Shown here piece by piece: positions 256-13,953 of a DNA stretch of 14,320 bases; within the stretch, counting starts at the first letter, position 1; every line of letters begins with the position of its first letter. A program made the position numbers and the translations under genes. The notes under the pieces were generated by a model. It made no database searches. It saw nothing but the letters and a program-made list of their open reading frames with translations, and was not told the DNA's origin. This DNA comes from Candidatus Scatomorpha stercorigallinarum (GTDB lineage Bacteria; Bacillota_A; Clostridia; Oscillospirales; Oscillospiraceae), in contig DVOV01000149.1 of the NCBI GenBank assembly GCA_018713375.1, positions 1-14,320 of the forward strand. Reading direction: 5' to 3'.

Positions 256-284
256 TTGACAGCGCTGGACGGTTAGTATATTAT
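256..284 (+). promoter_or_regulatory. Sigma-A type promoter for the GH20-phosphohexomutase operon
   Basis: A consensus -35 TTGACA (256-261) is followed after 17 nt by TATTAT (279-284) as -10. It lies about 50 nt upstream of the GH20 start. The 8-bp palindrome CAGCGCTG (260-267) overlaps the end of the -35 box and the spacer, and has the central CG typical of LacI/CcpA-family operators. No regulator gene is visible in the window. Confidence 0.75.
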
Positions 285-332: not shown

Positions 333-1382
333 ATGAAACGCTCCGCTTACCGCGTCGTACATCTGGACGCGGGCAGGAAGTATTTTAGCAGCGAAAACCT
401 CAGGAAGTTCATCGACAACTGCGCCGCGGCCGGCTTCGGCCAGCTGGAGCTCTATCTCTCCGACCACCAGGGCCTGCGCCTGGCGCTGGGCGACATGCGC
501 GTGGTCACGCCGCAGGGGGAGTACGACCTCTCCGGCGCGCCGGGCGACGGCTTCGGCGAGGAGGGGAACGAGCCGGACGGCACGGGCAAGTTCCTCACCG
601 AAGCGGAGATGGACGCGCTGATCGCCTACGCGGCGGGGAAGGGCGTGGAGATCGTGCCGGCCTTCGGCGCGCCCGGGCACCTGGGCGCCGTGCTCATGCA
701 GCCGGACGCCGGGGGCCTGCGCTATCCCGGCTCCCGCGGCTCGGTGGACATCACGCGCGCCGAGGGACGCGATTTCGCCCTCGCGCTGCTGGAAAAGTAC
801 GTGAAGTACTTCGCCGCGCGCGGCTGCCGCTTCTTCAACTTCTGCGCCGACGAGTTCGCCAACGACCTGGGAGAGCACCGCATGGGCTATGAGATGATAT
901 ACCGGAACGGCATGTACAAGGAGCACTTCGTGCCCTTCTTCAACGCCATGGCCGCCCTGGTGAAGAGATACGGCATGACGCCGCGCTGCTTCAACGACGG
1001 CGTGTACTACAACGAGGACAGCGAGGGCGTGGAGCCCGACCGCGGCGTGGAGGTCTGCTACTGGACCCACGGCTGGGAGGGCTATCGGCTGGCCTCGGCG
1101 GCGTATCTCGCCGCAAAGGGCTTCACGCTCATCAACGCTGACTCCGCCTTCTACTGGGTGCTGGGCAAGAACGAGTGGCCCGACGGCCCGGCAAAGGCCG
1201 CGGGCTTCGAGCCCGACCGCTTCAACAACTGCGAGGGCAGCACGGAAGCGGACGGGGCCATGATGTGCTTCTGGTGCGACATGGCGGACAGCGACGGCCC
1301 CGACGAGGGCGCCGCCGTTGCGGAAAAGGCCGCCGGCGTCATCGCCGAGTTCGGCCGCACGCTGGAGCGCAAATGCAGGTGA
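333..1382 (+). CDS. GH20 beta-N-acetylhexosaminidase, catalytic barrel only, cytoplasmic
   Basis: This 349-residue protein has no signal peptide, so it should act in the cytoplasm. It begins almost directly with the first barrel strand of glycoside hydrolase family 20 (HLDAGRKYFS at about residues 10-19, a pattern shared with StrH-type and lacto-N-biosidase-type GH20 domains). The catalytic pair is D173-E174 in FNFCADEFAND; family knowledge says the Asp positions the substrate acetamido group and the Glu is the general acid/base. W244 and W314 (CFWCDMAD) fit the aromatic wall of the GlcNAc pocket. The usual N-terminal GH20b domain is absent. Likely reaction: removal of terminal beta-GlcNAc (or GalNAc) from imported oligosaccharides. 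The ATG at 333 follows GGGGG at 319-323. The gene is first in an operon with a phosphohexomutase 44 bp downstream. Exact linkage specificity cannot be read from sequence. Confidence 0.85.
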   Translation: MKRSAYRVVHLDAGRKYFSSENLRKFIDNCAAAGFGQLELYLSDHQGLRLALGDMRVVTPQGEYDLSGAPGDGFGEEGNEPDGTGKFLTEAEMDALIAYAAGKGVEIVPAFGAPGHLGAVLMQPDAGGLRYPGSRGSVDITRAEGRDFALALLEKYVKYFAARGCRFFNFCADEFANDLGEHRMGYEMIYRNGMYKEHFVPFFNAMAALVKRYGMTPRCFNDGVYYNEDSEGVEPDRGVEVCYWTHGWEGYRLASAAYLAAKGFTLINADSAFYWVLGKNEWPDGPAKAAGFEPDRFNNCEGSTEADGAMMCFWCDMADSDGPDEGAAVAEKAAGVIAEFGRTLERKCR

Positions 1383-1426
1383 CAGGCAACACGATACGGT
1401 ACAAATAAGAGAGGAGCGCAAAGAAA

Positions 1427-3103
1427 ATGGACATCAGAGCAGAGTATTCGCGCTGGCTGGAGCGCGCCGTGGACGACAGCGACCTCATCGAGGAGCTCAG
1501 GGGGCTGGACCCCGACGGCGGCGAGGTCTCCGACCGCTTTTACCGCGACCTGGCCTTCGGCACCGGCGGGCTGCGCGGCGTCCTCGGCGCGGGGACGAAC
1601 AGGATGAACATCTACACCGTGCGCCGCGCCACGCAGGGCCTCTGCGCCTGGCTGAAGGCCTCCGGCGGCACGCCGTCCGTGGCCATCGCCCACGACAGCC
1701 GCATCAAGAGCAACCTCTTCGCCCGCGAGGCGGCGCGCGTGCTGGCCGCCAACGACGTCACCGCCTGGATCTACCCGCGGCTGGAGCCCACGCCCGCGCT
1801 CAGCTGGGCCGTGCGCTATTTCCACTGCGGCGCGGGCATCTGCGTCACCGCCAGCCACAACCCCGCCAAGTACAACGGCTATAAGGTCTACGGCCCGGAC
1901 GGCGGGCAGATCACCCTCGAGGCCGCGGAGCATGTGCAGGCCGCCATCGACAGCACCGACCCCTTCGACGGCGTGGCGCTGGCCGATTTCGATGCCGCCG
2001 TGGCCGACGGCCGCATCAGGTACATCCCCGAGCAGTGCCTGGAGGACTTCCTCGACGCCGTGCAGAAGCTCAGCCTCTCCGGCGGGGCGGAGGACCTGAG
2101 CGTGGTGTACACGCCGCTCAACGGCTCGGGGCTGGAGTGCGTGAGCAAAATACTCTCCCGCATCGGCGTGAAGGACGTCACCGTCGTGCCCGAGCAGGAG
2201 CACCCGGACGGGCGCTTCCCCACCTGCCCCTACCCCAACCCGGAGGAGCGCGAGGCCATGCAGCGTGGCCTGGAGCTGTGCGAAAAGCTGCACCCGGACC
2301 TGCTGCTGGGCACCGACCCGGACTGCGACCGCATGGGCTCCGCCGTGCCGGAGGGCGACGGCTACCGCCTGCTGACCGGCAACGAGATGGGCGTGCTGCT
2401 GCTCGACTACATCTGCCGCCGGCGCATGGAGCTGGGCACCATGCCGGAGAAGCCCGTGGCCGTCACCACCATCGTCTCCACCGACATGGCCGACGCCGTG
2501 GCCGCCGAGTACGGCGTGGAGCTGCGGCGCGTGCTCACCGGCTTCAAGTTCATCGGCGAGCAGATCGGCCTGCTGGAGGCCGAAGGCCACGGCGAGCGCT
2601 TCCTCTTCGGCTTCGAGGAGAGCTACGGCTACCTCTCCGGCTCCCATGTCCGCGACAAGGACGCCGTCAACGCCTCCATGCTCTGCTGCGAGATGGCCGC
2701 CTGGTACAAGAAGCAGGGCATGACCCTGGCCGACGCCATCCGCGCGCTCTATGAGAAGCACGGCTACACCTGCTGCGCCGTGAAGAGCTTCGCCTTCGAG
2801 GGCGAGGGCGGCATGGAGCGCATGGCCGCCGTGATGGACTCCCTGCGCGCCGCGCCCCCGGCGGAGATCGCCGGCCGGGCCGTCACCGGCCGCACGGACT
2901 ACCAGACGGGCGAGGGCGTGGCGCTGGAGCTGCCGCGCAGCAACGTGCTCGAATACCGCATGGACGGCGCCAAGCTCATCGTGCGCCCCAGCGGCACGGA
3001 GCCGAAGATCAAGGTCTATCTCTCCGCCCGCGCGGAGAGCATGGAGCGCGCGCAGGAGATCGACGGCGAGCTGGCGCAGGCCGCGGCCGGCTTTTTCGCC
3101 TGA
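1427..3103 (+). CDS. Phosphoglucomutase/phosphomannomutase (alpha-D-phosphohexomutase family)
   Basis: This complete 558-residue phosphohexomutase of the PGM2/PgcA-like long type carries all four functional loops. AFGTGGLRG is near residue 43. The phosphoserine loop is TASHNPAKYNGYK with catalytic S143. The metal loop is GTDPDCDR (D297, D299, D301). The sugar-binding loop is GFEESYGYLSG (395-405), and the phosphate-binding loop is RPSGTEPK (520-527). It moves phosphate between C1 and C6 of glucose or mannose. RBS GAGGAG (1411-1416) lies 10 nt before the ATG. The gene follows GH20 with a 44-bp gap and ends before a strong terminator, so the two form one unit. Given the GH130 phosphorylase nearby, conversion of mannose-1-phosphate to mannose-6-phosphate is an attractive role. 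Family members often act on both sugars, so the preferred substrate is an inference. Confidence 0.93.
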   Translation: MDIRAEYSRWLERAVDDSDLIEELRGLDPDGGEVSDRFYRDLAFGTGGLRGVLGAGTNRMNIYTVRRATQGLCAWLKASGGTPSVAIAHDSRIKSNLFAREAARVLAANDVTAWIYPRLEPTPALSWAVRYFHCGAGICVTASHNPAKYNGYKVYGPDGGQITLEAAEHVQAAIDSTDPFDGVALADFDAAVADGRIRYIPEQCLEDFLDAVQKLSLSGGAEDLSVVYTPLNGSGLECVSKILSRIGVKDVTVVPEQEHPDGRFPTCPYPNPEEREAMQRGLELCEKLHPDLLLGTDPDCDRMGSAVPEGDGYRLLTGNEMGVLLLDYICRRRMELGTMPEKPVAVTTIVSTDMADAVAAEYGVELRRVLTGFKFIGEQIGLLEAEGHGERFLFGFEESYGYLSGSHVRDKDAVNASMLCCEMAAWYKKQGMTLADAIRALYEKHGYTCCAVKSFAFEGEGGMERMAAVMDSLRAAPPAEIAGRAVTGRTDYQTGEGVALELPRSNVLEYRMDGAKLIVRPSGTEPKIKVYLSARAESMERAQEIDGELAQAAAGFFA

Positions 3104-3127
3104 AAACAGCATGATATGACGCCGGGA

Positions 3128-3160
3128 GCGGGCGGGGGGACGGCCCCCGCCCGCTTTTTT
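3128..3160 (+). terminator. Rho-independent terminator after the phosphohexomutase gene
   Basis: A perfect 11-bp GC stem (3128-3138 with 3144-3154) with a 5-nt loop runs into six T residues (3155-3160), starting 25 nt after the stop codon. It ends the GH20-phosphohexomutase transcript and shows that the transporter genes need their own promoter. Confidence 0.93.
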
Positions 3161-3238
3161 GCAGCCCTGGCAGGAGCTGGATACTATATTTTGCAACCCC
3201 GAGGTGGCGTTTCCATACTATCATATGGCCCTTACAGA

Positions 3239-3268
3239 CTTTCCCGGCGCGGGCTGTTCGTTTATAAT
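3239..3268 (+). promoter_or_regulatory. Probable promoter of the transporter/glycosidase operon
   Basis: A perfect -10 hexamer TATAAT lies at 3263-3268, about 64 nt upstream of the likely first start codon. The -35 position (about 3239-3244, CTTTCC) is poor, which would fit a promoter needing an activator. A short inverted repeat CCCG-GCG-CGGG (3243-3253) fills the spacer. A weaker second candidate lies upstream: TTGCAA at 3191 and CATACT at 3214, 17 nt apart. The rest of the 3161-3238 gap shows no other clear signal. Confidence 0.5.
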
Positions 3269-3317
3269 AACAAATAGCCTGAGCACGCTCTACTTGGAGA
3301 GGTGGATTACTTATGGA

Positions 3318-3322
3318 AGGTG
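3318..3322 (+). promoter_or_regulatory. Ribosome binding site favouring the GTG start at 3332
   Basis: AGGTG at 3318-3322 sits 9 nt before the GTG at 3332. The alternative GTG at 3302 has its purine-rich stretch (3296-3301) directly abutting it, too close for normal initiation. The same AGGTG motif at 3300-3304 instead sits 8 nt before an out-of-frame ATG at 3313. Confidence 0.45.
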
Positions 3323-3331
3323 GGACGCTAT

Positions 3332-4318
3332 GTGAAATCTGCTAACGCGCTTGAGCAGACAAGCACGCAGAAGCGCAAAAAGAGAAGCGGCAGCTCCATC
3401 CGCGACGATATCGAGCTGACGCTGCTGGCCGTGCCGACCACGGTCTGGTACCTTATTTTCTGCTATCTGCCCATGTTCGGCCTGGTCCTGGCCTTTAAGG
3501 ACTACAGGATAGTTGACGCCACCAAGGGCTTCATCTACAACCTGATCCAGAGCGACTGGACGCTGACGGGGAACTTCGAGTTCTTCCTCAAATCCAGCCA
3601 GTTCGGCATCGTCCTCCGCAACACCCTGCTGTACAACATCGTGTTTATCGTCCTCAACATCGTCATCCCCGTATCGCTGGCGATACTGATAAACCAGCTC
3701 TACAGCAAGCGCAAGTCCAAGACCTATCAGACCATGATGTTCATGCCGCACTTCATGTCCTGGGTCGTGGTAAGCTACTTCGTCTTCGCCTTCCTGAGCT
3801 ATGACAAGGGCCTGCTCAACTCTGTGCTCGAGGCTTTCGGCAAGGACCCCATCAACTGGTACACGGAAGCGAAGTACTGGCCATTTATCCTCGTGTTCAT
3901 GCAGATATGGAAGACCGTGGGCTACAACATGGTCGTCTATCTGGCCAGTATCAGCGGCATCGACACCTCGCTCTACGAAGCCGGCGCGCTCGACGGCGCC
4001 AGCAAGTTCCAGCAGGCGATACATATCACGCTGCCCGCCCTGAAGCCGGTCATCATCATGATGTTCATCCTCAGCGTCGGCAGGATCTTCAGCACGGACT
4101 TCGGCCTGTTCTACCAGATCCCCCGCGGCGTGACGAACTCCCTGTACGAGGCGACGATGACCTTCGACGTCTACATCTACAACATGCTGCTCACGCCTAA
4201 CGTGCCCATTGGCCGCACGGCTGCCGCCGGCTTCTTCCAGTCTGTCATCGGCTGCATCACCATCCTGGTGGCCAACGCCATCGTGCGCAAGGTCGACAGG
4301 CAGAGCGCCATTATCTGA
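3332..4318 (+). CDS. Sugar ABC transporter permease, LplB/YtcP-partner type
   Basis: This is the inner-membrane subunit of a carbohydrate ABC importer (about 328 residues from GTG 3332). After a polar, lysine-rich N-terminus there are about six hydrophobic segments (near residues 28-50, 92-118, 130-152, 176-202, 235-255 and 295-315). The EAA loop that contacts the ATPase begins at E216 (EAGALDGASKFQQAIHITLP). The combination of RDDIEL..LA.PT near the start and an early YLPMFGLVLAFKDY segment is typical of LplB-like permeases that pair with DUF3502 binding proteins. The start is uncertain: an in-frame GTG at 3302 adds 10 residues but has no properly spaced RBS. The gene is first of the operon; the next permease follows by 15 bp. 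No ATPase is present, as is usual in Firmicutes where a shared MsmX-type ATPase serves several importers. Confidence 0.9.
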   Translation: MKSANALEQTSTQKRKKRSGSSIRDDIELTLLAVPTTVWYLIFCYLPMFGLVLAFKDYRIVDATKGFIYNLIQSDWTLTGNFEFFLKSSQFGIVLRNTLLYNIVFIVLNIVIPVSLAILINQLYSKRKSKTYQTMMFMPHFMSWVVVSYFVFAFLSYDKGLLNSVLEAFGKDPINWYTEAKYWPFILVFMQIWKTVGYNMVVYLASISGIDTSLYEAGALDGASKFQQAIHITLPALKPVIIMMFILSVGRIFSTDFGLFYQIPRGVTNSLYEATMTFDVYIYNMLLTPNVPIGRTAAAGFFQSVIGCITILVANAIVRKVDRQSAII

Positions 4319-4330
4319 GGAGGGGGAGAG
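4317..4330 (+). promoter_or_regulatory. Strong ribosome binding site for the second permease
   Basis: GAGGAGGGGGAGAG overlaps the stop codon of the first permease and lies just before the ATG at 4334. This suggests coupled, near-equal translation of the two permease subunits. Confidence 0.7.
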
Positions 4331-4333
4331 ATC

Positions 4334-5248
4334 ATGAGTAAAAAGTCTGCTTCCAACGTCCTCAACCGCATCAACCCGGGCACGAACGTCGTTTTCAACA
4401 TCATCTTCATCCTCCTGTCGCTGATGTGCGTGCTGCCCATCGTGCTCATCTTCATCATCTCCATCACGGATGAGCAGAGCATCGCGCAGAACGGCTATCA
4501 GATCATCCCCAGCATGCTGAGCGCCAGCGCCTATACCTTCCTCTGGGGCGAGCGCGGGATGATACTGCAGGCGCTGTGGATCTCCGTTGAGGTCACCGTT
4601 ATCGGCACCGTCCTCGGCGTCATCCTCACCGCCACCATGGGCTACGTGCTCTCCCGCCCGGGCTACAAGCTGAACGGCTTCTTCTCCACCGTTGTTTTCA
4701 TCCCCATGATATTCAGCGGCGGCATGGTCGCCAGCTACGTGGTCATCGCGCAGATATTGAACTTGAGGGACACGATATGGTCGCTTATCCTGCCGCTGTG
4801 CGTGTCGTCCTTCAACGTCACCATCTGCCGCACATACTTCCGCACCAACATCCCCGATGCGGTCATCGAGTCGGCCAAGATCGACGGCGCGTCCCAGCTG
4901 ACCATCTTCATCAGGATCGTCACGCCCATCTCGAAGCCCCTGCTGGCCACCATCGGATTGTTCCTCGCCTTCGGCTACTGGAACGACTGGTTCCAGTCCT
5001 CGCTGTACATCAGCAAAGACAACCTGCTCTCCCTGCAGGCCCTGCTGAACCAGCTGCAGAAGAACATGGAGTTCCTGACCAAGAACCCGACGGCCGGCAT
5101 GTCGCTGCAGGATTACAAGCTGGCGATGCCGACGGAGTCCGTGCGAATGGCCATCGCGATCATCATCGCCGTGCCTATCGCCTGCGTCTACCCGTTCTTC
5201 CAGAAGTACTTCATCTCCGGCCTCACGGTCGGCGCGGTGAAGGGCTGA
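4334..5248 (+). CDS. Sugar ABC transporter permease, LplC/YtcP (UgpE/AraQ) type
   Basis: This 304-residue membrane protein is the second permease of the importer. It has an N-terminal membrane helix (FNIIFILLSLMCVLPIVLIFIISI near residues 17-40) and further hydrophobic segments near 74-100, 114-140, 200-220 and 268-290. The EAA loop starts at E179 (ESAKIDGASQLTIFIRIVTP) and is followed by FLAFGYWNDWF, the usual CUT1-family continuation. The C-terminus VGAVKG is the common ending of LplC/YtcP proteins. It should pair with the upstream permease to form the channel. The stop at 5246-5248 is followed by a hairpin (5264-5284) before the binding-protein gene. Confidence 0.92.
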   Translation: MSKKSASNVLNRINPGTNVVFNIIFILLSLMCVLPIVLIFIISITDEQSIAQNGYQIIPSMLSASAYTFLWGERGMILQALWISVEVTVIGTVLGVILTATMGYVLSRPGYKLNGFFSTVVFIPMIFSGGMVASYVVIAQILNLRDTIWSLILPLCVSSFNVTICRTYFRTNIPDAVIESAKIDGASQLTIFIRIVTPISKPLLATIGLFLAFGYWNDWFQSSLYISKDNLLSLQALLNQLQKNMEFLTKNPTAGMSLQDYKLAMPTESVRMAIAIIIAVPIACVYPFFQKYFISGLTVGAVKG

Positions 5249-5263
5249 TACCCGCGTATTAAA

Positions 5264-5284
5264 GGGCCCGCAGCCAGCGGGCCC
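5264..5284 (+). other. Intercistronic hairpin between permease and binding-protein genes
   Basis: A perfect 8-bp GC stem (GGGCCCGC 5264-5271 with 5277-5284) has a 5-nt loop. The T run (5296-5300) starts 11 nt after the stem, so this is a poor terminator. A role as an mRNA stability or processing element upstream of a highly expressed lipoprotein gene is more likely. Confidence 0.55.
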
Positions 5285-5300
5285 CGAAATAAAAATTTTT

Positions 5301-5306
5301 GGAGGT
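5301..5306 (+). promoter_or_regulatory. Ribosome binding site fixing the binding-protein start
   Basis: GGAGGT is 4 nt before ATG 5311. The longer reading from a TTG at 5299 would place the start at the Shine-Dalgarno site itself and add four residues before a classic lipoprotein signal, so it is rejected. Confidence 0.85.
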
Positions 5307-5310
5307 CAAT

Positions 5311-6786
5311 ATGAAGAAGAAAATTCTTGCTCTGCTCCTCTCCGCCCTGATGCTGATGGTCCTTGTGGCCGGCTGCGGAGAGGAGCCCGCCGCTGAGTCT
5401 GCCGCCCCCGGCGGTGAGGCTGATGACGGCGAGATCGTTGAGCTGACCTGGTACATGGTCGGCAATGGCCAGCCCGAGAACTACGATGCCTGGAAGGCCA
5501 ACCTCGACGCCTACCTGGAAGAGAAGATCGGCGTGCACCTGAACGTGAACGTCGTCGGCTGGGGCGACTGGGACGGCCGCCGCAGCACCATCGTCAGCAC
5601 CAACGAGCCCTACGACATCATCTTCACCAACCTCGGCACCTTCAGCAACGACGTCAAGATCGGCGCCTTCGCCGACATCACTGAGATCGTGCAGACTGCT
5701 TCCCCCGAGCTCTACTCGCTGATCGACGAGGATTACTGGCGCGCTGTCTCCATCGACGGCAAGATCTACGGCGTCCCCACCCTGAAGGACGTCTCCGTCA
5801 CCCAGTACTTCGTCTGGGATAAGGCCCTGGCCGAGAAGTACGACCCCAACTACGAGTCCCTCAACACCCTTGAGTCCCTGACCGACCTCCTCACCGCCAT
5901 CAAGGACGGCGAGAACGTCACTCCGTTCATCCTGCACCGCGAGGGCCTGTCCGCCGTGACCATGGACTACGACGCCATGGGCACCGGCCTGCCCCCCATC
6001 GGCGTGAACTACAACGATGAGACCGCCACCGTCGTCTCCGTGTTCGAGCAGGAAGACGTCATGAGCATGCTCACCACCCTGCATGAGTGGTACCAGGCCG
6101 GCATCATCAACGCCGACGCCGCCACCCTCGCCGAGGCTCCGATGTACCGCACCTGCTACGTCGCGCAGGGCTGGCCCTACGCCGCCGTTACCACCTGGAG
6201 CCCGAACATGGGCGTTGAGGCCACCGCCGTGCAGTGGGGCAACACCTACCTGTCCAACGACACCGTGCAGGGCTCCGTCAGCTGCATCTCCGCTTCCTGC
6301 GCCCACCCTGACAAGGCCCTGCAGCTCCTCGAGCTGGTGAACACCGACTCCTACGTCCGTGACGCCCTGTTCTACGGCCTCGAGGGCGAGAACTTCGAGT
6401 ACGTTGAGGCCGAGGACGGCAGCCAGCGCGTGCACAAGCTGAACAACGACTGGCCGATGGCCGGCTACACCCAGGGCTCCTTCTTCAACGTCACCATGCT
6501 GGACGACACCGACTACAACCAGTATGACGAAGTCGCCGCCCTGAACGACGCCGCCATTATCTCCCCGCTGCTGGGCTTCGTGTTCGACACCAGCAGCCTG
6601 AGCAACGAGCTGAGCTCCTGCATGGAGATCTGGCAGCGCTACAAGTCCGAGCTGCTGACCGGCACCATGGATCCCGCCACCGGTGTCCCCGAGATGATGG
6701 AAGAGCTCCGCGCCGCCGGCTTTGACGAGCTGGTCGCCGAGGCTCAGACCCAGATCGACGCTTTCATGGCCGGGCAGGCTGCCTGA
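5311..6786 (+). CDS. Lipoprotein oligosaccharide-binding protein of ABC transporter (LipO/DUF3502 class)
   Basis: This 491-residue extracellular solute-binding protein is anchored to the membrane by lipid. The signal is MKKK, a hydrophobic core and the lipobox LVAGC with C22 as the lipidated residue, followed by a flexible Ala/Glu/Gly linker. The mature part begins with ELTWYMVGNGQP, standard for family 1 sugar-binding proteins. The C-terminal third (about 355-487, with LLGFVFD, ELLTGTMDP and a final amphipathic helix) is the DUF3502 type. It should capture the oligosaccharide and deliver it to the two upstream permeases. The order permease-permease-binding protein is that of the pneumococcal N-glycan importer NgtP1-NgtP2-NgtS. 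Codon choice appears more restricted than in neighbouring genes (Lys mainly AAG, Ile almost only ATC), fitting high expression. Ligand specificity cannot be read from sequence. Confidence 0.92.
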   Translation: MKKKILALLLSALMLMVLVAGCGEEPAAESAAPGGEADDGEIVELTWYMVGNGQPENYDAWKANLDAYLEEKIGVHLNVNVVGWGDWDGRRSTIVSTNEPYDIIFTNLGTFSNDVKIGAFADITEIVQTASPELYSLIDEDYWRAVSIDGKIYGVPTLKDVSVTQYFVWDKALAEKYDPNYESLNTLESLTDLLTAIKDGENVTPFILHREGLSAVTMDYDAMGTGLPPIGVNYNDETATVVSVFEQEDVMSMLTTLHEWYQAGIINADAATLAEAPMYRTCYVAQGWPYAAVTTWSPNMGVEATAVQWGNTYLSNDTVQGSVSCISASCAHPDKALQLLELVNTDSYVRDALFYGLEGENFEYVEAEDGSQRVHKLNNDWPMAGYTQGSFFNVTMLDDTDYNQYDEVAALNDAAIISPLLGFVFDTSSLSNELSSCMEIWQRYKSELLTGTMDPATGVPEMMEELRAAGFDELVAEAQTQIDAFMAGQAA

Positions 6787-6828
6787 GCGCGCCCGCTGAC
6801 TATTAAAGCGCAGAAAAACCAATGAAAA

Positions 6829-6862
6829 AGGGGCTGTCGCGCCTGAAAACGCGGCAGCCCCT
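6829..6862 (+). other. Strong intercistronic hairpin between binding protein and GH130
   Basis: A 13-bp stem (6829-6841 with 6850-6862, one G-T pair) has an 8-nt loop CCTGAAAA. No T run follows on the plus strand, so it is not a classical terminator for this operon. It more likely protects the upstream message or reduces downstream expression. On the minus strand the stem is followed by five T residues (opposite 6825-6829), so it could stop antisense transcription. Confidence 0.6.
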
Positions 6863-6888
6863 ACAAGACTGTAAAGGCAGGTGCCACC

Positions 6889-7878
6889 ATGACCAAGATC
6901 CTGGGCTCCTCCCTGCCCAACATCCCCTGGGAGGACAGGCCCGCCGGCTATAAGCTGCCGGTGTGGCGCTACAGCGGCAATCCTATCATCGGCCGCGACG
7001 GCAACCGCCGGTCCAACAGCGTGTTCAACAGCGCCGTCGTGCCCTATAAGGGCGGCTTCGCGGGGCTGTTCCGCTGCGACAGCCGCTCCGTGAGCATGGA
7101 CCTCTTCGCCGGCTTCAGTGACGACGGCGTCCACTGGAAGATCGACGACGACCCCATCTCCTTCGCCGACGGTGACGCGGAGATCATCAAGCGCGAATAC
7201 CGCTACGACCCGCGCGTCTGCCTGCTGGACGGCAAGTATTACATCACCTGGTGCAACGGCTATCACGGCCCGACCATCGGCGTGGGCTGGACGGAGGATT
7301 TCCGCACCTTCCACCAGCTGGAGAACGCCTTTTTGCCCTATAACCGCAACGGCGTGCTCTTCCCGCGCAAGATCGGCGGCATGTACGCCATGCTCAGCCG
7401 CCCGAGCGACACGGGGCACACCCCCTTCGGCGACATCTTCATCAGCCGCAGCCCGGACATGACCTTCTGGGGCATGCACCGCCACGTTATGAGCACCGTC
7501 CCCGGCGACCGCTCCGCCTGGCAGAGCACGAAGATCGGCGCGGGGCCGATACCCATCGAGACGGACGAGGGCTGGCTGCTCATCTACCACGGCGTTATCA
7601 CCACCTGCAACGGCTATGTCTACCGCATGGGCGCCGCCCTGCTGGACCGCGACGAGCCCTGGAAGGTGCTCTGCCGCGGCGCGGACTACATCCTTGCGCC
7701 CTATGAGCTCTATGAGTGCGTGGGCGACGTGCCGAACGTCACTTTCCCCTGCGCCGCGCTCGCCGATGCGGACACCGGCCGCATCGCCATCTACTATGGC
7801 TGCGCCGACACCGTGACGGGCCTTGCCTTCACCACGGCGGACGACCTGCTCGCCTATATCAAAGAAAACAGCCTTTGA
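6889..7878 (+). CDS. GH130 phosphorylase, probable beta-1,4-mannosyl-N-acetylglucosamine phosphorylase
   Basis: This 329-residue cytoplasmic protein is of glycoside hydrolase family 130, subfamily 2 type. It closely resembles, from memory, UhgbMP and BT1033, which phosphorolyse Man-beta-1,4-GlcNAc to alpha-mannose-1-phosphate and GlcNAc. Shared signatures along the five-bladed propeller include PWEDRPAG (13-20), [12 protein letters not shown] (42-53), GFAGLFRCD (56-64), YDPRVC with the likely catalytic D107, [13 protein letters not shown] (120-132), [13 protein letters not shown] (152-164), [15 protein letters not shown] (170-184), KIGAGPIP and LIYHG. Family members lack a classical second carboxylate and use phosphate as nucleophile. 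CAGGTG (6878-6883) precedes the ATG. The next gene starts 10 nt after the stop. GH130_2 also includes mannooligosaccharide phosphorylases, but the GH38 and GH20 neighbours favour an N-glycan substrate. Confidence 0.9.
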
Positions 7879-7884
7879 GGAGGG
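7877..7884 (+). promoter_or_regulatory. Ribosome binding site fixing the GH38 start
   Basis: GAGGAGGG overlaps the GH130 stop (7876-7878) and is 4 nt before ATG 7889. An in-frame ATG at 7823 lies inside GH130 and gives a low-complexity out-of-frame extension, so it is rejected. Confidence 0.85.
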
Positions 7885-7888
7885 CCAT

Positions 7889-10800
7889 ATGTACTTCATT
7901 GATAAGCGCATCCAGGTGATATGCGACGAGCTGCGCCGCGAGCGCATCCGCGACCGCTCCGCCATGGGCTGCTGGAGCTATAAGAAGGGGCTTTACTTCC
8001 GCCCCGAGGAGGCGGAGGCCGACACCGCCAACCCCTGGGAGCATTTCGACTGCGCCCACATGCACTGGTACGGCCCGGACGAGCACTACTGGTTCCGCGC
8101 CGACCTCACGGTGCCGCAGGAGTTCGCCGGCAGGAGCGTGTGGATGAACGTCCGCACGCAGATAGACGAATACGACGACGGCAAAAACCCGCAGTTCCTC
8201 CTCTTCGTGAACGGGGAAGTGGAGCAGGGCCTGGACATGAACCACCGCGAAGTGCGCCTCACAGAGCGCGCCGCGGGCGGCGAGACCTTCCGCATCGACA
8301 TGCAGGCCTACACCGGCACGCTGTACAGCGAGTTCAACCTGATCGTGGAGCTCTACTGGCTCGACGAGGAGGTGGACGGGCTGTATTACGACCTGCAGGT
8401 GCCGCTCTGGGCCTTCCCCCGCATGGACGAGGACGACAAGAACCGTCTCGACATACAGACCGTGCTCAACGACGCGGTGAACAGGCTCGACCTGCGCCGG
8501 CCCTATTCGCCGGAGTACTACGCCGGCGTGGCCGCCGCGCGCGAACTGCTGGAAGAGCGGCTCTATAAGGGCATGGGCGGCTGGCACGACGTGGTCGCCA
8601 CCTGCATCGGCCACACGCACATCGACGTGGCCTGGTGGTGGACCGTGGCCCAGGTGCGCGAGAAGGTGGCGCGCAGCTTCGCCACCGTCCTCAAGCTGAT
8701 GGACGAGTACCCGGACTACCGCTTCATGTCCAGCCAGTGCGTGCTCTACGACTTCCTGCGCCAGCGCTACCCCGAGGTATACGCGCGCGTGAAGGAGCGC
8801 GTGGCCGAGGGCCGCTGGGAGCCCGAAGGCGGTATGTGGGTCGAGTCCGATACCAACCTCACCTCCGGCGAGTCCCTCGTCAGGCAGTTCGTGCACGGCA
8901 AGCGCTTTTTCAAGGATGAGTTCGGCGTCGACTGCCGCATCCTCTGGCTGCCGGACGTGTTCGGCTATTCCGGCGCCCTGCCGCAGATCATGAAGCGCAG
9001 CGGCATCGACTATTTCATGACCACCAAGCTGGCCTGGAACCAGATCGACAAGATCCCCAACGACACCTTCATCTGGCGCGGCATCGATGGCAGCGAGGTG
9101 CTCACGCACCTCATCACCACCGTTGACGTGGGGCAGGACGTGAAGAAGAACTTCTTCACCACCTACAACGGCCGCCTGCACCCGGACGCCATCATGGGCG
9201 GCTGGGAGCGCTATCAGAACAAGGAGATCAACAACGACATCCTGGTGGCCTTTGGCCACGGCGACGGCGGCGGCGGCCCCACCCGCGAGATGCTGGAAGT
9301 GGCCAAGCGCATGAAGCGCGGCGTCAAGGGCATACCGCAGGTGCGCCAGGAGTTCGCCGGCGAGTATTTCCGCGAGCTGGAAGCGCGCGTGAAGGACAAC
9401 CCCAGGCTCGACACCTGGGAGGGCGAGCTCTATTTCGAGTACCACCGCGGCACGCTCACCTCCATGGCCCGCAACAAGCGCGCCAACCGCAAGAACGAGC
9501 TGCTGCTGATGGATTTGGAGCTGGCCTCCGTGATGGCGCAGGACAAGCTGGCTTATCCCGGGCAGGAGCTGGACGGCATGTGGAAGACCATGCTCACCAA
9601 CCAGTTCCACGACATACTGCCCGGCAGCTCGATACACGAGGTGTACGAGGTGACGAAGGCGGAGTACGAGGCCCTGAGCGAACAGGCCCACGCGCTGCTC
9701 GGCGAGCGGCTGCGCAGCCTGGCCGGCGAGGGCCGGGCCGTGGCCGTGTTCAACACGCTCGGCTTCGAGCGCGACGACATCGTCAGCCTGCCCGACACGG
9801 GCTGCGCCGCCCTCAGCGACGGCGAAGGCCGCGTGTTCCCCGTGCAGCGCACGGCGGAGGGCGCCGTGGCCTACGTCCGCGGCCTGCCGCCGAAGGGCTA
9901 CAAGTCCCTGCTGCCCGCGGACTGCGCGGCGGCGGAGAGCCCCTTCACGCTGGAAGGCGATACGCTCACCACGCCGTTCTACCGCGTGACGCTGGACGAG
10001 AACGGGCACTTCAGCTCCATCTATGACCTCGAGTACGACCGCGAGACGGTGCAGCCCGGCCGGCGCGCCAACCTGCTGCGCATGTTCGAGGACAAGCCGA
10101 TATACTACGACAACTGGGACATCGACGAGTATTACACCGAGAAGTCCTGGGATGTGGACAACCTCACGAAGCTCGAGTGGACGGAAACGGGCCCCGTGCG
10201 CGCCACGCTGCACCTGGAGTACGAGATCGCGGGCGTCGCCATCTGGCAGGACGTGCGCTTCTATGCCGACAGCCGCCGCATCGACTTCGAGACGGCCGTT
10301 GACTGGACGCTTCACCAGCACCTGCTGAAGGTGGAGTTCCCCGTGGCCGTGCACAGCGACGAGGCCACCTTCGACGTGCAGTTCGGCAGCCTCAAGCGCA
10401 AGGTGCACAAGAACACCAGCTGGGACAAGGCGCGCTTCGAGTACGGCGGGCAGAAGTGGATGGACTTCTCCGAGGGCCACTACGGCGTCGCCCTGCTCAA
10501 CGACTGCAAATACGGCCACTCCGTCCATGACGGCGTGCTCAGCCTGACGCTGATAAAGTCCGGCATCGAGCCCAACCCGATGGCGGACGTGGAAATGCAC
10601 CACTTCACCTACTCCATCCTGCCGCACAGCGGCGGCTGGCGCGAGGGCGGCGTGGTGCGCGAGGGCTATAAGCTCAACCAGCCTGCCTACGCCCTGGCCA
10701 ACGCGGCCGAGGGACTGGACTTCTCCTTCGCCGGCGTGCAGCCCGCCAACATCATCATGGAGACGGTGAAGTGCGCGGAGGACGGCGAGGGGACCGTGCT

Positions 10801-10978
10801 GCGCCTCTACGAGTGCGACGACGCGCTGACTAAAGCGTCCATCCGCCTGCCGGCGGGCGCCAGGCGCGCCTGGAGCTGCGACCTGCTCGAGGAGCGCGAG
10901 CGCGAGCTGGAGATCTGCGACGGCTGCGTGGAGTACACCTTCAAGCCCTTCGAGATCGTCACCATCCGCTGCGAATAA
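7889..10978 (+). CDS. GH38 alpha-mannosidase, cytosolic MAN2C1-like type
   Basis: This 1029-residue alpha-mannosidase has no signal peptide. An N-terminal beta-sandwich-like region (about 45-150, with YWFRADLTVP and FLLFVNGE) is followed by the GH38 zinc-dependent catalytic domain. The zinc ligands are H244 and D246 in IGHTHIDVAWWW, the nucleophile D356 in LPDVFGYSGALP (also a ligand in the family) and H574 in NQFHDILPGSSI. A helical middle domain and large C-terminal beta-domains (about 650-1029) follow. Length and domain order fit the cytosolic MAN2C1-like branch. It removes alpha-linked mannose from imported oligosaccharides, consistent with trimming N-glycan cores to Man-beta-1,4-GlcNAc for the upstream phosphorylase. 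Translation is likely coupled to GH130 through the overlapping RBS. All key residues are intact. Linkage preference (alpha-1,2/1,3/1,6) is not predictable here. Confidence 0.93.
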   Translation: MYFIDKRIQVICDELRRERIRDRSAMGCWSYKKGLYFRPEEAEADTANPWEHFDCAHMHWYGPDEHYWFRADLTVPQEFAGRSVWMNVRTQIDEYDDGKNPQFLLFVNGEVEQGLDMNHREVRLTERAAGGETFRIDMQAYTGTLYSEFNLIVELYWLDEEVDGLYYDLQVPLWAFPRMDEDDKNRLDIQTVLNDAVNRLDLRRPYSPEYYAGVAAARELLEERLYKGMGGWHDVVATCIGHTHIDVAWWWTVAQVREKVARSFATVLKLMDEYPDYRFMSSQCVLYDFLRQRYPEVYARVKERVAEGRWEPEGGMWVESDTNLTSGESLVRQFVHGKRFFKDEFGVDCRILWLPDVFGYSGALPQIMKRSGIDYFMTTKLAWNQIDKIPNDTFIWRGIDGSEVLTHLITTVDVGQDVKKNFFTTYNGRLHPDAIMGGWERYQNKEINNDILVAFGHGDGGGGPTREMLEVAKRMKRGVKGIPQVRQEFAGEYFRELEARVKDNPRLDTWEGELYFEYHRGTLTSMARNKRANRKNELLLMDLELASVMAQDKLAYPGQELDGMWKTMLTNQFHDILPGSSIHEVYEVTKAEYEALSEQAHALLGERLRSLAGEGRAVAVFNTLGFERDDIVSLPDTGCAALSDGEGRVFPVQRTAEGAVAYVRGLPPKGYKSLLPADCAAAESPFTLEGDTLTTPFYRVTLDENGHFSSIYDLEYDRETVQPGRRANLLRMFEDKPIYYDNWDIDEYYTEKSWDVDNLTKLEWTETGPVRATLHLEYEIAGVAIWQDVRFYADSRRIDFETAVDWTLHQHLLKVEFPVAVHSDEATFDVQFGSLKRKVHKNTSWDKARFEYGGQKWMDFSEGHYGVALLNDCKYGHSVHDGVLSLTLIKSGIEPNPMADVEMHHFTYSILPHSGGWREGGVVREGYKLNQPAYALANAAEGLDFSFAGVQPANIIMETVKCAEDGEGTVLRLYECDDALTKASIRLPAGARRAWSCDLLEERERELEICDGCVEYTFKPFEIVTIRCE

Positions 10979-11001
10979 GGCGCGCGGCCCTTTTCCCGCG
11001 C

Positions 11002-11035
11002 ATCGGGGGGAGCGCGAGCTCTCCCCGATATTTTT
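11002..11035 (+). terminator. Terminator-like attenuator between GH38 and GH3
   Basis: An 11-bp stem (11002-11012 with 11019-11029, one G-T pair) has a 6-nt loop CGCGAG and is followed by A and five T residues (11031-11035). It looks like a real intrinsic terminator. The GH3 gene starts only 16 nt later and no promoter is evident in the 72-bp gap, so partial read-through is the likely way GH3 is expressed. Confidence 0.75.
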
Positions 11036-11050
11036 AAGCTGGAGGTAACC

Positions 11051-13324
11051 ATGGAACTCTACCGAGACGCAAAGGCCGCGCCGGAGGCGCGCGCGGAGGA
11101 CCTGCTGCAGCGCATGACGCTGCGCGAAAAGGTCGGCCAGCTTAACCAGCGGCTCTACGGCTTCGCCGAATATGAGATCAGGGACGGCGAGTTCGTCCCC
11201 GGCGGGGGCTTCAGGGCCGAGGTGGAGCGCTATTCCGGCATGGGCGCGCTCTATGGCCTCTACCGCGCCGACCCCTGGTCGCGCCGGGATTTCACCAACG
11301 GCCTGGTGGGCGAGCTGGCGCCGCGCGCGCGCAACGCCGTGCAGCGCTATGTGATGGAGCACTCGCGCCTCGGCATACCCGTGCTGATGGCCACGGAGTG
11401 CCCCCACGGGCACCAGGCCCTGGACGGCTGCCTGCTGCCGGTGAACCTGGCGGCGGCCGCCTGCTTCGACCCCGCGCTGCTCTCCGCCGCAGCGGCGGTG
11501 AGCGCGCGCCAGCTCGCGGAGCTGGGCGTGGACCTGGCGCTGGTGTCCTGCCTGGACGTGCTGCGAGACCCGCGCTGGGGGCGCAGCGAGGAGTGCTTCG
11601 GGGAGGACCCGCTGCTCGCCTCCCGCATGGCGGAGGCCGTGATAAGCGCCATGCAGCGCCAGGGCGTGGACGTGGTGGCCAAGCACCTCTGCGCCCAGGG
11701 GGAGACCACCGGCGGCGTCAACGCCAGCGCCGCGCGCATCGGCGAGCGGGAACTGCGGGAGATACACCTGCCGCCGGCGGAAGCCGCCGTGCGCGCGGGT
11801 GTGCAGGGCTTCATGGCTGCCTATAACGAGATCGACGGCATCTACTGCCACGCAAATAAGCGCCTGCTGACGGGCTACCTGCGCGGCGAGCTGGGCTTCA
11901 ATGGCATCGTCATGTCCGACGGCATCGCCATCGACCAACTGGACGCCGTCACCGGCTCGCGCATGATGTCCGGCGCGCTGGCGCTCAACGCCGGCGTGGA
12001 CATCGGCCTCTGGGACACGGCCTTCTCCCTGCTGGAGGAGGCGGCGGAGGCCGGGGCCGTGAGCACGGCGCGCATCGACGAGGCCGCATACCGCGTGCTG
12101 CTGCTGAAATTCCGCCGCGGGCTCTTTGACGAGCCCTTCGTGCCGGAGACGGCGCACTACCAGCTTTACGCCGACCCCGGGCGCTTCCCGGAGCCGGCGA
12201 AGCTGGCCGCGGAGACGCCCGTGCTGCTGAAAAACGAGGGCGGCGCGCTGCCCCTGGCCCTCGCCGGGCGGCGGATACTGCTCGCCGGGCCGGCGGCGGA
12301 CGACCTCTACGCCCAGCTCGGCGACTACACGCCGCCGCAGCGCCCGGGCACGGGCAGCACGGTGCGCGCGGCGCTGGAGCACCTGGTCGCGGCGGGCGGC
12401 GGGCAGCTCGTCTATGAGCGCGGCTGCGGCATGTTCGAGCCGGCGCCGGCGGAGGAGCTGGCGCGCATAAGAGAGGCGGCCGCGCGCTGCGACGCGGTGG
12501 TGGCCGTGCTCGGCGGCAGCTCAAGCCGCTTTTCCGGCGGGGAGTTTGACGCCAACGGCGCGCTGCTCGCCCAGCACCGGGCCACCATGGACTGCGGCGA
12601 GGGCGTGGACGCCGCCGAACTGCGCCTGCCCGGCGGGCAGCTGGAGCTGCTGCGCGCCCTGCGCGCGGCCGGGAAGCCGGTGATCACCGTCATCATCGCC
12701 GGGCGGCCCTACGCCATGGCGGAGATAGAGCGTCTCTCGGACGCCATACTGTACTGCTTCTACCCCGGCCCCCAGGGCGGGGAGGCCATCGCGCGCATCC
12801 TCTGCGGCGAACTCGAGCCCAGCGGCCGGCTGCCCGCCTCGCTGCCCGACAGCGTGGGACAGCTGCCCGTCTACTACAACTACAAGGATTCCTACGCCGC
12901 CATGCGCTACTACGACGACAAAAAGCCGCCGCGCTGGCGCTTCGGCAGCGGCATGGGCTATGCGCGCTTTGAGCACGAGCTGCTCTCGGCCCCCGAGGGC
13001 GAGCTGGCGGCGGGCGGCGCGATCTGCCTGCGCCTCGCCCTGCGAAACGCCTCCGGGCGCGACGGCGCGGCCGTGCCGCAGCTCTATATCCACCGCACGC
13101 AGGGCATCGCCACTTCGCGCACGCGGCAGCTCGTGGACTGGAAAAAGCTCCGCCTCCGCGCCGGTGAGGGCGCGGAAACGGAGCTCAGTATACCGCCGGA
13201 GGCCCTCCGGCAGTGGGACGGCGCGGCCTGGGTCACGCCGCCGGGGAAGATCGAGTGGTTCCTGGGCGACAACGGCGAGGACTGGGCGTCCGGCGAGTTC
13301 ACCTTGAGCGGGACTTCTGCCTGA
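11051..13324 (+). CDS. GH3 beta-glycosidase (beta-glucosidase/xylosidase-like, three-domain)
   Basis: This 757-residue protein has no signal peptide. Domain order is the GH3 N-terminal TIM barrel (about 15-350; starts with LLQRMTLREKVGQL, then RWGRSEECFGEDP and AKHLCAQG), the alpha/beta-sandwich domain (about 385-610) and a fibronectin III-like C-terminal domain (about 650-757). The nucleophile is D290 in GFNGIVMSDG. The likely acid/base is E517 in CGEGVDAAELRLPGGQ, aligning with the EGxDR-x-x-L-x-LPGxQ pattern, but Arg is replaced here. It lacks the KH-PGHG-type dyad of NagZ hexosaminidases, so a beta-glucosidase-like mechanism is expected. RBS GGAGGT (11041-11046) fixes the ATG. The gene ends the operon, and its 3' end overlaps the convergent YesL-type gene by 26 bp. 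Substrate unknown: a beta-linked residue on the imported glycan is a reasonable guess. Confidence 0.88.
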   Translation: MELYRDAKAAPEARAEDLLQRMTLREKVGQLNQRLYGFAEYEIRDGEFVPGGGFRAEVERYSGMGALYGLYRADPWSRRDFTNGLVGELAPRARNAVQRYVMEHSRLGIPVLMATECPHGHQALDGCLLPVNLAAAACFDPALLSAAAAVSARQLAELGVDLALVSCLDVLRDPRWGRSEECFGEDPLLASRMAEAVISAMQRQGVDVVAKHLCAQGETTGGVNASAARIGERELREIHLPPAEAAVRAGVQGFMAAYNEIDGIYCHANKRLLTGYLRGELGFNGIVMSDGIAIDQLDAVTGSRMMSGALALNAGVDIGLWDTAFSLLEEAAEAGAVSTARIDEAAYRVLLLKFRRGLFDEPFVPETAHYQLYADPGRFPEPAKLAAETPVLLKNEGGALPLALAGRRILLAGPAADDLYAQLGDYTPPQRPGTGSTVRAALEHLVAAGGGQLVYERGCGMFEPAPAEELARIREAAARCDAVVAVLGGSSSRFSGGEFDANGALLAQHRATMDCGEGVDAAELRLPGGQLELLRALRAAGKPVITVIIAGRPYAMAEIERLSDAILYCFYPGPQGGEAIARILCGELEPSGRLPASLPDSVGQLPVYYNYKDSYAAMRYYDDKKPPRWRFGSGMGYARFEHELLSAPEGELAAGGAICLRLALRNASGRDGAAVPQLYIHRTQGIATSRTRQLVDWKKLRLRAGEGAETELSIPPEALRQWDGAAWVTPPGKIEWFLGDNGEDWASGEFTLSGTSA

Positions 13325-13949: not shown

Positions 13950-13953
13950 TTAC

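What the first reader, a model, noticed from the sequence alone, without database searches (positions are those of the whole stretch)
333..13324. Compact cytoplasmic N-glycan core utilisation locus in a high-GC Firmicute
GH20, phosphohexomutase, an oligosaccharide ABC importer, a UhgbMP-like GH130 phosphorylase, a cytosolic GH38 alpha-mannosidase and a GH3 lie together in two adjacent co-directional units. Known activities join into one route: import, GlcNAc removal, alpha-mannose removal, phosphorolysis of Man-beta-1,4-GlcNAc, and Man-1-P to Man-6-P. The phosphorolytic step saves ATP. The Bacteroides version (BT1033 locus) uses SusCD and periplasmic enzymes; here every enzyme lacks a signal peptide, so degradation appears entirely intracellular.
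Basis: partly seen in the sequence, partly recalled or inferred. Interest (0 to 1): 0.72.

Follow-up and report, generated by a model that had tools for sequence, protein, structure and literature searches.

The report
Intracellular N-glycan-eating gene cluster
A Clostridia-type bacterium, probably from an animal gut, carries a gene cluster that most likely imports sugar trees cut from glycoproteins and dismantles them inside the cell, using phosphate to save energy at the last step; similar clusters recur in relatives and resemble known ones in Streptococcus pneumoniae and Bifidobacterium.

Summary
Genes for GH20, a phosphohexomutase, two ABC permeases, a DUF3502 binding lipoprotein, GH130 subfamily 2, GH38 and GH3 lie at the stated places, and no enzyme shows a signal peptide. 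The N-glycan reading is well supported. The binding protein's closest solved relative is S. pneumoniae NgtS, which binds Man5GlcNAc. The block permeases–binding protein–GH130–GH38 recurs in 25 of 55 related loci with adequate flanks; 19 of these 25 carry GH20-type genes and two a GH85 endoglycosidase. A sister MAG has the same order plus ROK kinase and mannose-6-P isomerase nearby. It has one GH130 and no GH26, which argues against beta-mannan. New here are the phosphorolytic ending and an Ams1-class GH38, mostly without GH125. Not shown: any enzyme activity, the mutase's Man-1-P specificity, the GH130 acceptor, or the GH3 substrate. GH3 is xylosidase-like, so xylosylated plant N-glycans are a live option. 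The sister MAG lacks GH85 and GH18, suggesting a scavenger. Verdict: a new variant of a known kind.

The parts
256..284 (+). promoter-like site (TTGACA-17-TATTAT) before GH20
   Evidence: 11 of 12 consensus matches, the only site listed; shuffles give 1.8 sites on average, so the count is not above chance
333..1382 (+). GH20 beta-N-acetylhexosaminidase, 349 aa, no signal peptide; best PDB relatives 7pul and the GH20 domains 2yl5/4azg
   Evidence: Pfam PF00728 E 3e-20; PDB E 2e-52 to 1e-51; D173-E174
1427..3103 (+). alpha-D-phosphohexomutase, 558 aa; proposed Man-1-P to Man-6-P
   Evidence: Pfam PGM_PMM I-IV; TASHNP; sister MAG has another copy elsewhere, 44% identical
3121..3160 (+). terminator-like hairpin plus T-run between mutase and permease
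   Evidence: -34.2 kcal/mol, z -4.2; not listed by the consensus scan
3302..4318 (+). LplB-type ABC permease (true start uncertain)
   Evidence: PF00528 E 6e-13; 93% in L001; the name LplB is recalled
4334..5248 (+). YtcP-type ABC permease
   Evidence: PF00528 E 3e-6; 93% in L001; the name YtcP is recalled
5299..6786 (+). DUF3502 solute-binding lipoprotein, NgtS-like
   Evidence: PF12010 E 2e-25; PDB best hit 5swa (NgtS) E 5e-59; W88 = NgtS Trp81, Y390 = NgtS Trp386 by my mapping
6889..7878 (+). GH130 subfamily 2 beta-1,4-mannoside phosphorylase
   Evidence: PDB UhgbMP E 2e-150, RaMP2 (5ayd) E 2e-143; D107 = UhgbMP Asp104
7889..10978 (+). GH38 alpha-mannosidase, Ams1 class, cytoplasmic
   Evidence: PF01074 E 8e-94; PDB Ams1 (6lz1) E 3e-143 against 2wyh (recalled as S. 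pyogenes GH38) E 1e-19
11002..11029 (+). terminator-like hairpin plus T-run between GH38 and GH3
   Evidence: 12 pairs, z -3.4; a similar stem and T-run in L001 by eye
11051..13324 (+). GH3 beta-glycosidase, xylosidase-like
   Evidence: PF00933 E 7e-56; best NCBIfam beta-xylosidase/arabinosidase, 414 bits, under its cut-off of 1050; best PDB beta-xylosidase 7zb3 E 4e-110
13299..13949 (-). DUF624/MusI-family membrane protein, opposite strand; membership in the system uncertain
   Evidence: PF04854 E 2e-7; NF052431 110 bits, under its cut-off of 160
13954..14319 (-). C-terminal end of a second DUF3502 binding protein, cut by the window; in the sister MAG its counterpart follows a two-component system
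   Evidence: PF12010 E 1e-17

Best explanation
This is a cytoplasmic N-glycan core utilisation locus of an Oscillospiraceae-type Clostridium. Proposed route: (1) short N-glycan fragments with one reducing GlcNAc, released outside (probably by other microbes' endoglycosidases), are caught by the NgtS-like lipoprotein and imported by the two permeases with an ATPase encoded elsewhere; (2) GH20 removes remaining beta-GlcNAc from trimmed antennae; (3) the Ams1-class GH38 removes alpha-1,3- and alpha-1,6-mannose without GH125; (4) GH130 phosphorolyses Man-beta-1,4-GlcNAc to Man-1-P and GlcNAc; (5) the mutase makes Man-6-P; free mannose is phosphorylated by a ROK kinase, and phosphomannose isomerase feeds both into glycolysis; (6) GH3 removes a beta-linked branch, possibly the beta-1,2-xylose of plant N-glycans. 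Shown here: gene content, conserved motifs, lack of evident signal peptides on the enzymes, recurrence of the block, presence of kinase and isomerase in the sister MAG. Inferred from family knowledge: every substrate and reaction. Least certain: the roles of GH3 and mutase, and the source of the fragments.
For: Binding protein: the only strong PDB relatives (E 5e-59 to 7e-58) are 5swa/5mlt/5suo; 5SUO and 5SWA are NgtS (PMC5215778, passages). NgtS Trp81, which contacts a terminal alpha-1,6 mannose, is Trp in the window and in 23 of 23 core and 18 of 18 intermediate relatives, but in 1 of 7 distant DUF3502-type proteins. Gene order: 25 of 55 GH130 loci with both flanks have the three transport genes upstream and GH38 downstream; 22 have neither, 7 GH38 only, 1 transporter only. 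In 21 of the 25 the GH130-GH38 gap is at most 167 bp. GH20-type clusters occur in 19 of 25 core against 4 of 30 other loci. GH85 lies inside 2 of 25 core loci and 10 of 25 core genomes have a GH85 match over the cut-off. Against mannan: the sister MAG has one GH130 and no GH26. GH38 is of the Ams1 class; GH125 above 200 bits is in 4 of 25 core genomes against 16 of 22 comparison genomes, GH92 in 0 of 25 against 7 of 22. ROK and PMI lie about 5 kb beyond GH3, on its strand, in the sister contig.
Against: No activity is measured. GH130 scores nearly as well against the mannooligosaccharide phosphorylase RaMP2 (481 against 504 bits). A recalled UhgbMP acceptor-site residue (Tyr240) is Tyr in the window but Phe in the 97% identical sister and in 51 of 80 relatives, so it does not discriminate. 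NgtS Trp386, which stacks on Man-GlcNAc, is Tyr here. GH85 is not significantly commoner in core than in comparison genomes (10 of 25 against 6 of 22, p 0.54), and GH26 is in 6 of 25 core against 8 of 22 (p 0.52). The sister MAG has no GH85 or GH18 match. The upstream GH20-mutase pair was found only in the sister among the 80 loci (L002, the next closest, is cut before that place), and a mutase at 45% identity or better lies in only 5 of 80 loci. Genomes in the comparisons are related and many are MAGs, so absences and p values are only indicative.
Confidence: 0.77

Rival explanations
1. Beta-manno-oligosaccharide (mannan or glucomannan) utilisation: the importer brings in linear beta-mannan fragments, GH130 phosphorolyses them and GH3 removes glucose, as in the Roseburia intestinalis mannan loci.
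For: GH130_2 includes RaMP2 and R. intestinalis GH130_2; that species' mannan loci hold GH3 beta-glucosidases, and its Pgm interconverts Man-1-P and Man-6-P (PMC6385246, passages). GH26 is over the cut-off in 6 of 25 core genomes.
Against: GH38 and GH20 have no evident role on mannan; the sister MAG has no GH26 and no second GH130, whereas R. intestinalis uses GH26, GH130_1 and an epimerase; the binding protein is NgtS-like. An epimerase was not searched for.
Confidence: 0.1
2. A general alpha-mannoside scavenging locus (fungal alpha-mannan or other mannosides), with GH130 acting on an incidental beta-mannoside.
For: GH38 enzymes can act on alpha-mannans (PMC10154615, passages).
Against: GH92 in 0 of 25 core genomes, GH125 above 200 bits in only 4 of 25; no GH76 or GH99 domain was reported for the locus representatives put through Pfam (a sample); alpha-mannan does not explain GH130_2 or GH20.
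Confidence: 0.05
3. A version of the best explanation rather than an exclusive rival: animal complex N-glycans are the main substrate and GH3 plays another part, for example a glucoside side activity or a hitch-hiking gene with its own regulation.
For: GH20 resembles 2yl5-type GH20 domains, which I recall as S. pneumoniae StrH, active on complex N-glycan antennae. A hairpin separates GH3 from GH38, and GH3 at 45% identity or better is near only 11 of 25 core loci.
Against: GH3 lies next behind GH38 in several core loci and scores best against beta-xylosidases.
Confidence: 0.35

Closest known systems
Streptococcus pneumoniae NgtS-NgtP1-NgtP2 importer with EndoD and the CPL (GH20C, ROK, GH38, GH125, GH92, GH29) (PMC5215778, passages read)
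   Same: DUF3502-type binding protein with two permeases and no ATPase gene nearby; GH38 trimming proposed inside the cell; GH20 and ROK genes in the system; fragment ends in Man-beta-GlcNAc.
   Different: There importer and enzymes are in separate places, alpha-1,6-mannose is removed by GH125, and the paper says the fate of Man1GlcNAc is unknown with no beta-1,4-mannosidase candidate. Here GH130 would fill that step, GH38 is of another subgroup (Ams1-like rather than 2wyh-like), and in the sister MAG no GH92 and only a partial 64-bit GH125 match were found.
Bifidobacterium longum oligomannose N-glycan pathway (mnaABC, GH85, GH38, GH125, GH5_18) (PMC11758915, passages read)
   Same: ABC uptake and intracellular GH38 degradation in a Gram-positive gut bacterium; the PDB GH38s 7ufr-7ufu that match here (E 1e-115 to 1e-120) are, as I recall but could not confirm, the B. 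longum enzymes.
   Different: The core beta-mannose is assigned to a GH5_18 beta-mannosidase rather than a phosphorylase; GH125 is part of the set.
Bacteroides BT1033 / Uhgb_MP phosphorylases (PMC10619541, PMC8950772, passages read)
   Same: GH130 phosphorolysis of Man-beta-1,4-GlcNAc (or -chitobiose) to Man-1-P.
   Different: There import is by SusC/D systems (recalled); here by an ABC importer, with all trimming enzymes apparently in the cytoplasm.
Roseburia intestinalis beta-mannan loci (PMC6385246, passages read)
   Same: Firmicute ABC importer, GH130_2, GH3, Man-1-P to Man-6-P mutase.
   Different: GH26, GH130_1 and epimerase there; no role for GH38 or GH20.
Bacteroides plant N-glycan degradation with a GH3 beta-1,2-xylosidase (PMC9522356, passages read)
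   Same: GH3 and GH130 genes occur near group 2 PNGase genes in some Bacteroides loci.
   Different: GH3 predicted periplasmic, with PNGase and SusC/D; none of these features in the window.

Membership tests
GH130 subfamily 2 (beta-1,4-mannoside phosphorylase) | closer to UhgbMP/RaMP2/TM1225 than to GH130_1 or the beta-1,2 groups; catalytic Asp | tested here: met
   504/481/441 bits against 128 or less for the other PDB matches; D107 conserved in 80 of 80 relatives
[quoted passage not shown]
   five recalled acceptor-site residues are all present in the window, but four are invariant in all 80 relatives and the fifth differs between the window and its sister
NgtS-type N-glycan ABC importer | DUF3502 lipoprotein with two permeases, sequence homology to NgtS | tested here: met
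   E 5e-59 over residues 41-491; PF12010; lipobox
NgtS-type N-glycan ABC importer | ligand-contacting Trp81 and Trp386 | tested here: inconclusive
   Trp81 kept, Trp386 replaced by Tyr; residue numbers mapped by me onto the PDB chain
NgtS-type N-glycan ABC importer | binds Man3-5GlcNAc | not testable with these tools
   needs a binding measurement
S. pneumoniae CPL-type pathway | GH38-GH125 pair with GH92 and GH29 | tested here: not met
   GH125, GH92 and GH29 are not among the window's genes; sister MAG has no GH92 and only a 64-bit partial GH125 match, over the family cut-off; GH29 not searched genome-wide
GH38 of the Ams1 class | GH38 N, middle and C domains, closest to Ams1 | tested here: met
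   four GH38 Pfam domains; Ams1 482 bits against 73 for 2wyh
Firmicute beta-mannan locus (Roseburia type) | GH26, GH130_1, epimerase | tested here: not met
   none among the window's genes; sister MAG: no GH26, one GH130 only; epimerase not searched genome-wide
GH3 beta-1,2-xylosidase of plant N-glycans | xylosidase-type active site and activity on xylosylated N-glycan | tested here: inconclusive
   Glu (ATECPHG) where the beta-xylosidase 7zb3 and EmGH1 have Glu and the beta-glucosidase 6r5i has Asp (the meaning of this position is my inference); the Bacteroides enzyme was not compared
Phosphomannomutase | Man-1-P to Man-6-P activity | not testable with these tools
   PGM/PMM domains only; no NCBIfam equivalog reached its cut-off

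The most novel reading that the evidence does not exclude
The locus is a wholly cytoplasmic, phosphorolytic pathway for xylosylated plant N-glycans. GH3 is a cytoplasmic beta-1,2-xylosidase, one Ams1-class GH38 clears both alpha-mannose arms, GH130 finishes the core, and the bacterium makes no endoglycosidase, living on plant free N-glycans or fragments released by neighbours.
Probability: 0.2. Interest if true: 0.62.

Novelty: new variant of a known kind. Interest (0 to 1): 0.45.

Why it matters
If right, a recurring locus (25 of the 55 examined loci with both flanks) shows a Gram-positive way to finish the step left open in the S. pneumoniae model, the fate of Man-beta-GlcNAc, and a GH38 standing in for the GH38-GH125 pair. 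It would make many uncultured Clostridia candidate consumers, perhaps cross-feeders, of host or plant N-glycans, with a defined gene set to test and to annotate genomes.

Tried and rejected
UhgbMP Tyr240 as a marker of GlcNAc acceptors was tried and dropped: Tyr in 27, Phe in 51, Leu 1, Met 1 of 80, and different between the window and its 97% identical sister. That this residue matters is recalled; the structure paper was not held.

Enrichment of GH85 in core genomes was tested and is not significant (p 0.54). Rarity of GH26 as a general argument was tested and is not significant (6 of 25 against 8 of 22, p 0.52); it serves for the sister MAG only.

A GH125 in the sister MAG was considered: its one match covers about half the model at 64.5 bits, over the family cut-off. 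It sits between frames that I read by eye as alpha-glucoside enzymes (not run through Pfam), so I do not count it. G010 has a similar 50-bit match; with both counted the core figure is 6 of 25.

A first ORF caller missed genes and was replaced. Even then some loci have wrong-strand shadow ORFs (for example L005 and L018), so the cluster counts are approximate, more likely too low than too high. Cluster functions rest on Pfam scans of one or a few members.

Paper searches found no description of this Clostridia locus, but I saw only their capped listings. Searches combined N-glycan with GH130, GH38, GH85, GH3, Firmicutes, Roseburia, Clostridia or Oscillospiraceae. The library holds open-licence papers only, and two key papers were not held.

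Structure prediction, fold search, RNA family search and the phage/plasmid collections were not used; sequence matches were already strong.
Full report
What is there. Two minus-strand genes follow: DUF624 and the end of a second DUF3502 binding protein. Homology is far beyond chance for the named enzymes and the binding protein, and expected motifs are intact (their catalytic role is recalled, except GH130 Asp104, which PMC4599007 and PMC10619541 name). A simple hydropathy test finds no signal peptide on any enzyme and a lipobox on the binding protein. Hairpins with T-runs lie after the mutase and between GH38 and GH3; the second recurs by eye in the sister species. So there are probably three transcription units, not two.

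Source. No genome is held for the window. The nearest genome is a MAG titled uncultured Oscillospiraceae bacterium (L001, handle G001): 97% identity in GH130, 82% over 14.2 kb of DNA, same gene order. It is treated below as a sister species. A gut origin is inferred from the titles of relatives such as Faecousia.

Binding protein. The only strong PDB matches (E 5e-59 to 7e-58) are 5swa, 5mlt and 5suo (a fourth, Lmo0181, is at E 7e-4). The paper with 5SUO and 5SWA describes NgtS of S. pneumoniae, which binds Man5GlcNAc with a Ka near 1e6 per molar and seats the reducing Man-GlcNAc at the base of its cleft (PMC5215778, passages). By my numbering, Trp81 is conserved and Trp386 is Tyr. I compared 48 related binding proteins from the fetched loci: 23 from core loci at 44% identity or more, 18 intermediate (two core loci fall here or were missed), 7 distant. 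The Trp81 column is Trp in 23 of 23, 18 of 18 and 1 of 7. The Trp386 column is Tyr in 23 of 23, 18 of 18 and 1 of 7; the other 6 have Phe. The core set thus looks like one ligand class related, but not identical, to NgtS. Few DUF3502 proteins seem to be in the PDB, so closeness to NgtS alone would be weak.

Neighbourhood. Of 55 with at least 4.5 kb upstream and 1.5 kb downstream, 25 have all three transport genes upstream and GH38 downstream on the same strand (at least 40% identity over half the query), 7 have GH38 only, 1 the transporter only and 22 neither. The GH130-GH38 gap is 13-167 bp in 21 of the 25, 285-352 bp in two and over 1 kb in two. GH20-type clusters are present in 19 of 25 core and 4 of 30 other loci, and a Peripla_BP_3 protein (LacI-type regulator by inference) in 17 of 25 and 3 of 30. 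GH85 genes lie beside the operon in L043 and L057 (L057 by Pfam; L043 by clustering and by its genome hit). Some core loci have a second, divergent GH38-like gene (L014, L020, L049) or a ROK-PMI fusion (L043). GH3 at 45% identity or better is near 11 of 25 core loci. The GH20 of the window, at 35% identity or better, was found only in the sister among the 80 loci (same-strand search); L002, the next closest relative, is cut before that place.

Genome-wide tests. I searched 47 genomes: all 25 core and the 22 with neither full transporter nor GH38 downstream; the other 8 of the 55 were left out because of the 50-locus limit. GH85 over the cut-off: 10 of 25 and 6 of 22. GH125 above 200 bits: 4 of 25 and 16 of 22; over the family cut-off 6 of 25 and 16 of 22. 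GH92: 0 of 25 and 7 of 22. GH26 over the cut-off: 6 of 25 and 8 of 22. Fisher p values are 0.54, 0.0001 (for 4 of 25), 0.003 and 0.52. Relatedness and incomplete MAGs make them indicative only, and some comparison loci (for example L058 and L072) hold a rearranged transporter and GH38 elsewhere in the locus. The GH125 and GH92 differences suggest that GH38 in these loci does most of the alpha-mannosidase work alone.

Sister MAG. It has one GH130, one GH20, the locus's own, three mutase-family genes (the C27 copy is 44% identical to the window's), and no match to GH85, GH18, GH92 or GH26. On the same contig, on the strand of the main operon and about 5 kb beyond GH3, lie a ROK kinase and the only type I phosphomannose isomerase found. 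Between GH3 and ROK, on the other strand, lie a histidine kinase, an AraC-type response regulator, a second DUF3502 protein and DUF624. This would complete a route from mannose and Man-1-P to fructose-6-P and offers a possible regulator. The MAG is 1.9 Mb and may be incomplete, so absences are provisional.

Enzymes. GH130 belongs to subfamily 2, with UhgbMP and RaMP2 nearly tied, so the acceptor is undecided by sequence; the GH38 and GH20 neighbours tip it to GlcNAc. GH38 is of the Ams1 class rather than the 2wyh class. GH20 matches 7pul and the 2yl5-type domains about equally. GH3 scores best against beta-xylosidases and carries Glu in a segment where the beta-xylosidase 7zb3 and EmGH1 have Glu and the beta-glucosidase 6r5i has Asp. 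A Bacteroides GH3 removes beta-1,2-xylose from plant N-glycans, and GH3 and GH130 genes occur near group 2 PNGase genes in some Bacteroides (PMC9522356, passages). That makes plant N-glycans a real but untested option.

Comparison with what is known. In S. pneumoniae the NgtS importer and GH38 and GH125 inside the cell are proposed to leave Man1GlcNAc, whose fate is unknown, and no ATPase gene lies near the importer (PMC5215778, passages). In B. longum mnaABC, GH85, GH38, GH125 and GH5_18 are assigned to oligomannose N-glycan use (PMC11758915, passages). GH130 phosphorylases are described as cytoplasmic and the hydrolases as secreted (PMC4599007, passages). R. intestinalis Pgm interconverts Man-1-P and Man-6-P (PMC6385246, passages). 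The present locus combines these known parts in a way that the listings of six searches of the held papers did not show.

Verdict. A real, recurring gene set whose most likely job is cytoplasmic breakdown of imported N-glycan core fragments with a phosphorolytic last step: a new variant of a known kind, of moderate interest, open to direct biochemical test.

Noticed in passing
window 13299-14319 and L087:5968-10880: A second DUF3502 binding protein (in the sister, 30% identical to the window's first) with DUF624, preceded in the sister by a histidine kinase and AraC-type regulator; perhaps a sensing module for the main operon.
   Followed up: partly
L014:7569-9971, L020:5607-8144, L049:1929-4325 (cluster c10): A roughly 800-845 aa protein near GH130 in several core loci with only a faint GH38N match (E 1e-10 to 3e-6): possibly a divergent alpha-mannosidase.
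   Followed up: partly
L043:17884-19914: A ROK kinase fused to a type I phosphomannose isomerase directly downstream of GH3.
   Followed up: no
L050, L068 (in part L077): Other GH130 loci carry GH29, GH18, an M17 peptidase and a transglutaminase-core protein instead of the ABC-GH38 block (L077: only the GH29 and transglutaminase-core clusters): perhaps another route for fucosylated glycopeptides.
   Followed up: no
window 3200-3275: A stretch before the permease gene is well conserved with the sister (around ATACTATCA, GACTTTCC and GTTTATAATAACAA), perhaps an activator site and -10 element.
   Followed up: no
G025 (L076): Nine GH85 matches in one 2.2 Mb MAG (Candidatus Heritagella), a marked expansion.
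   Followed up: no
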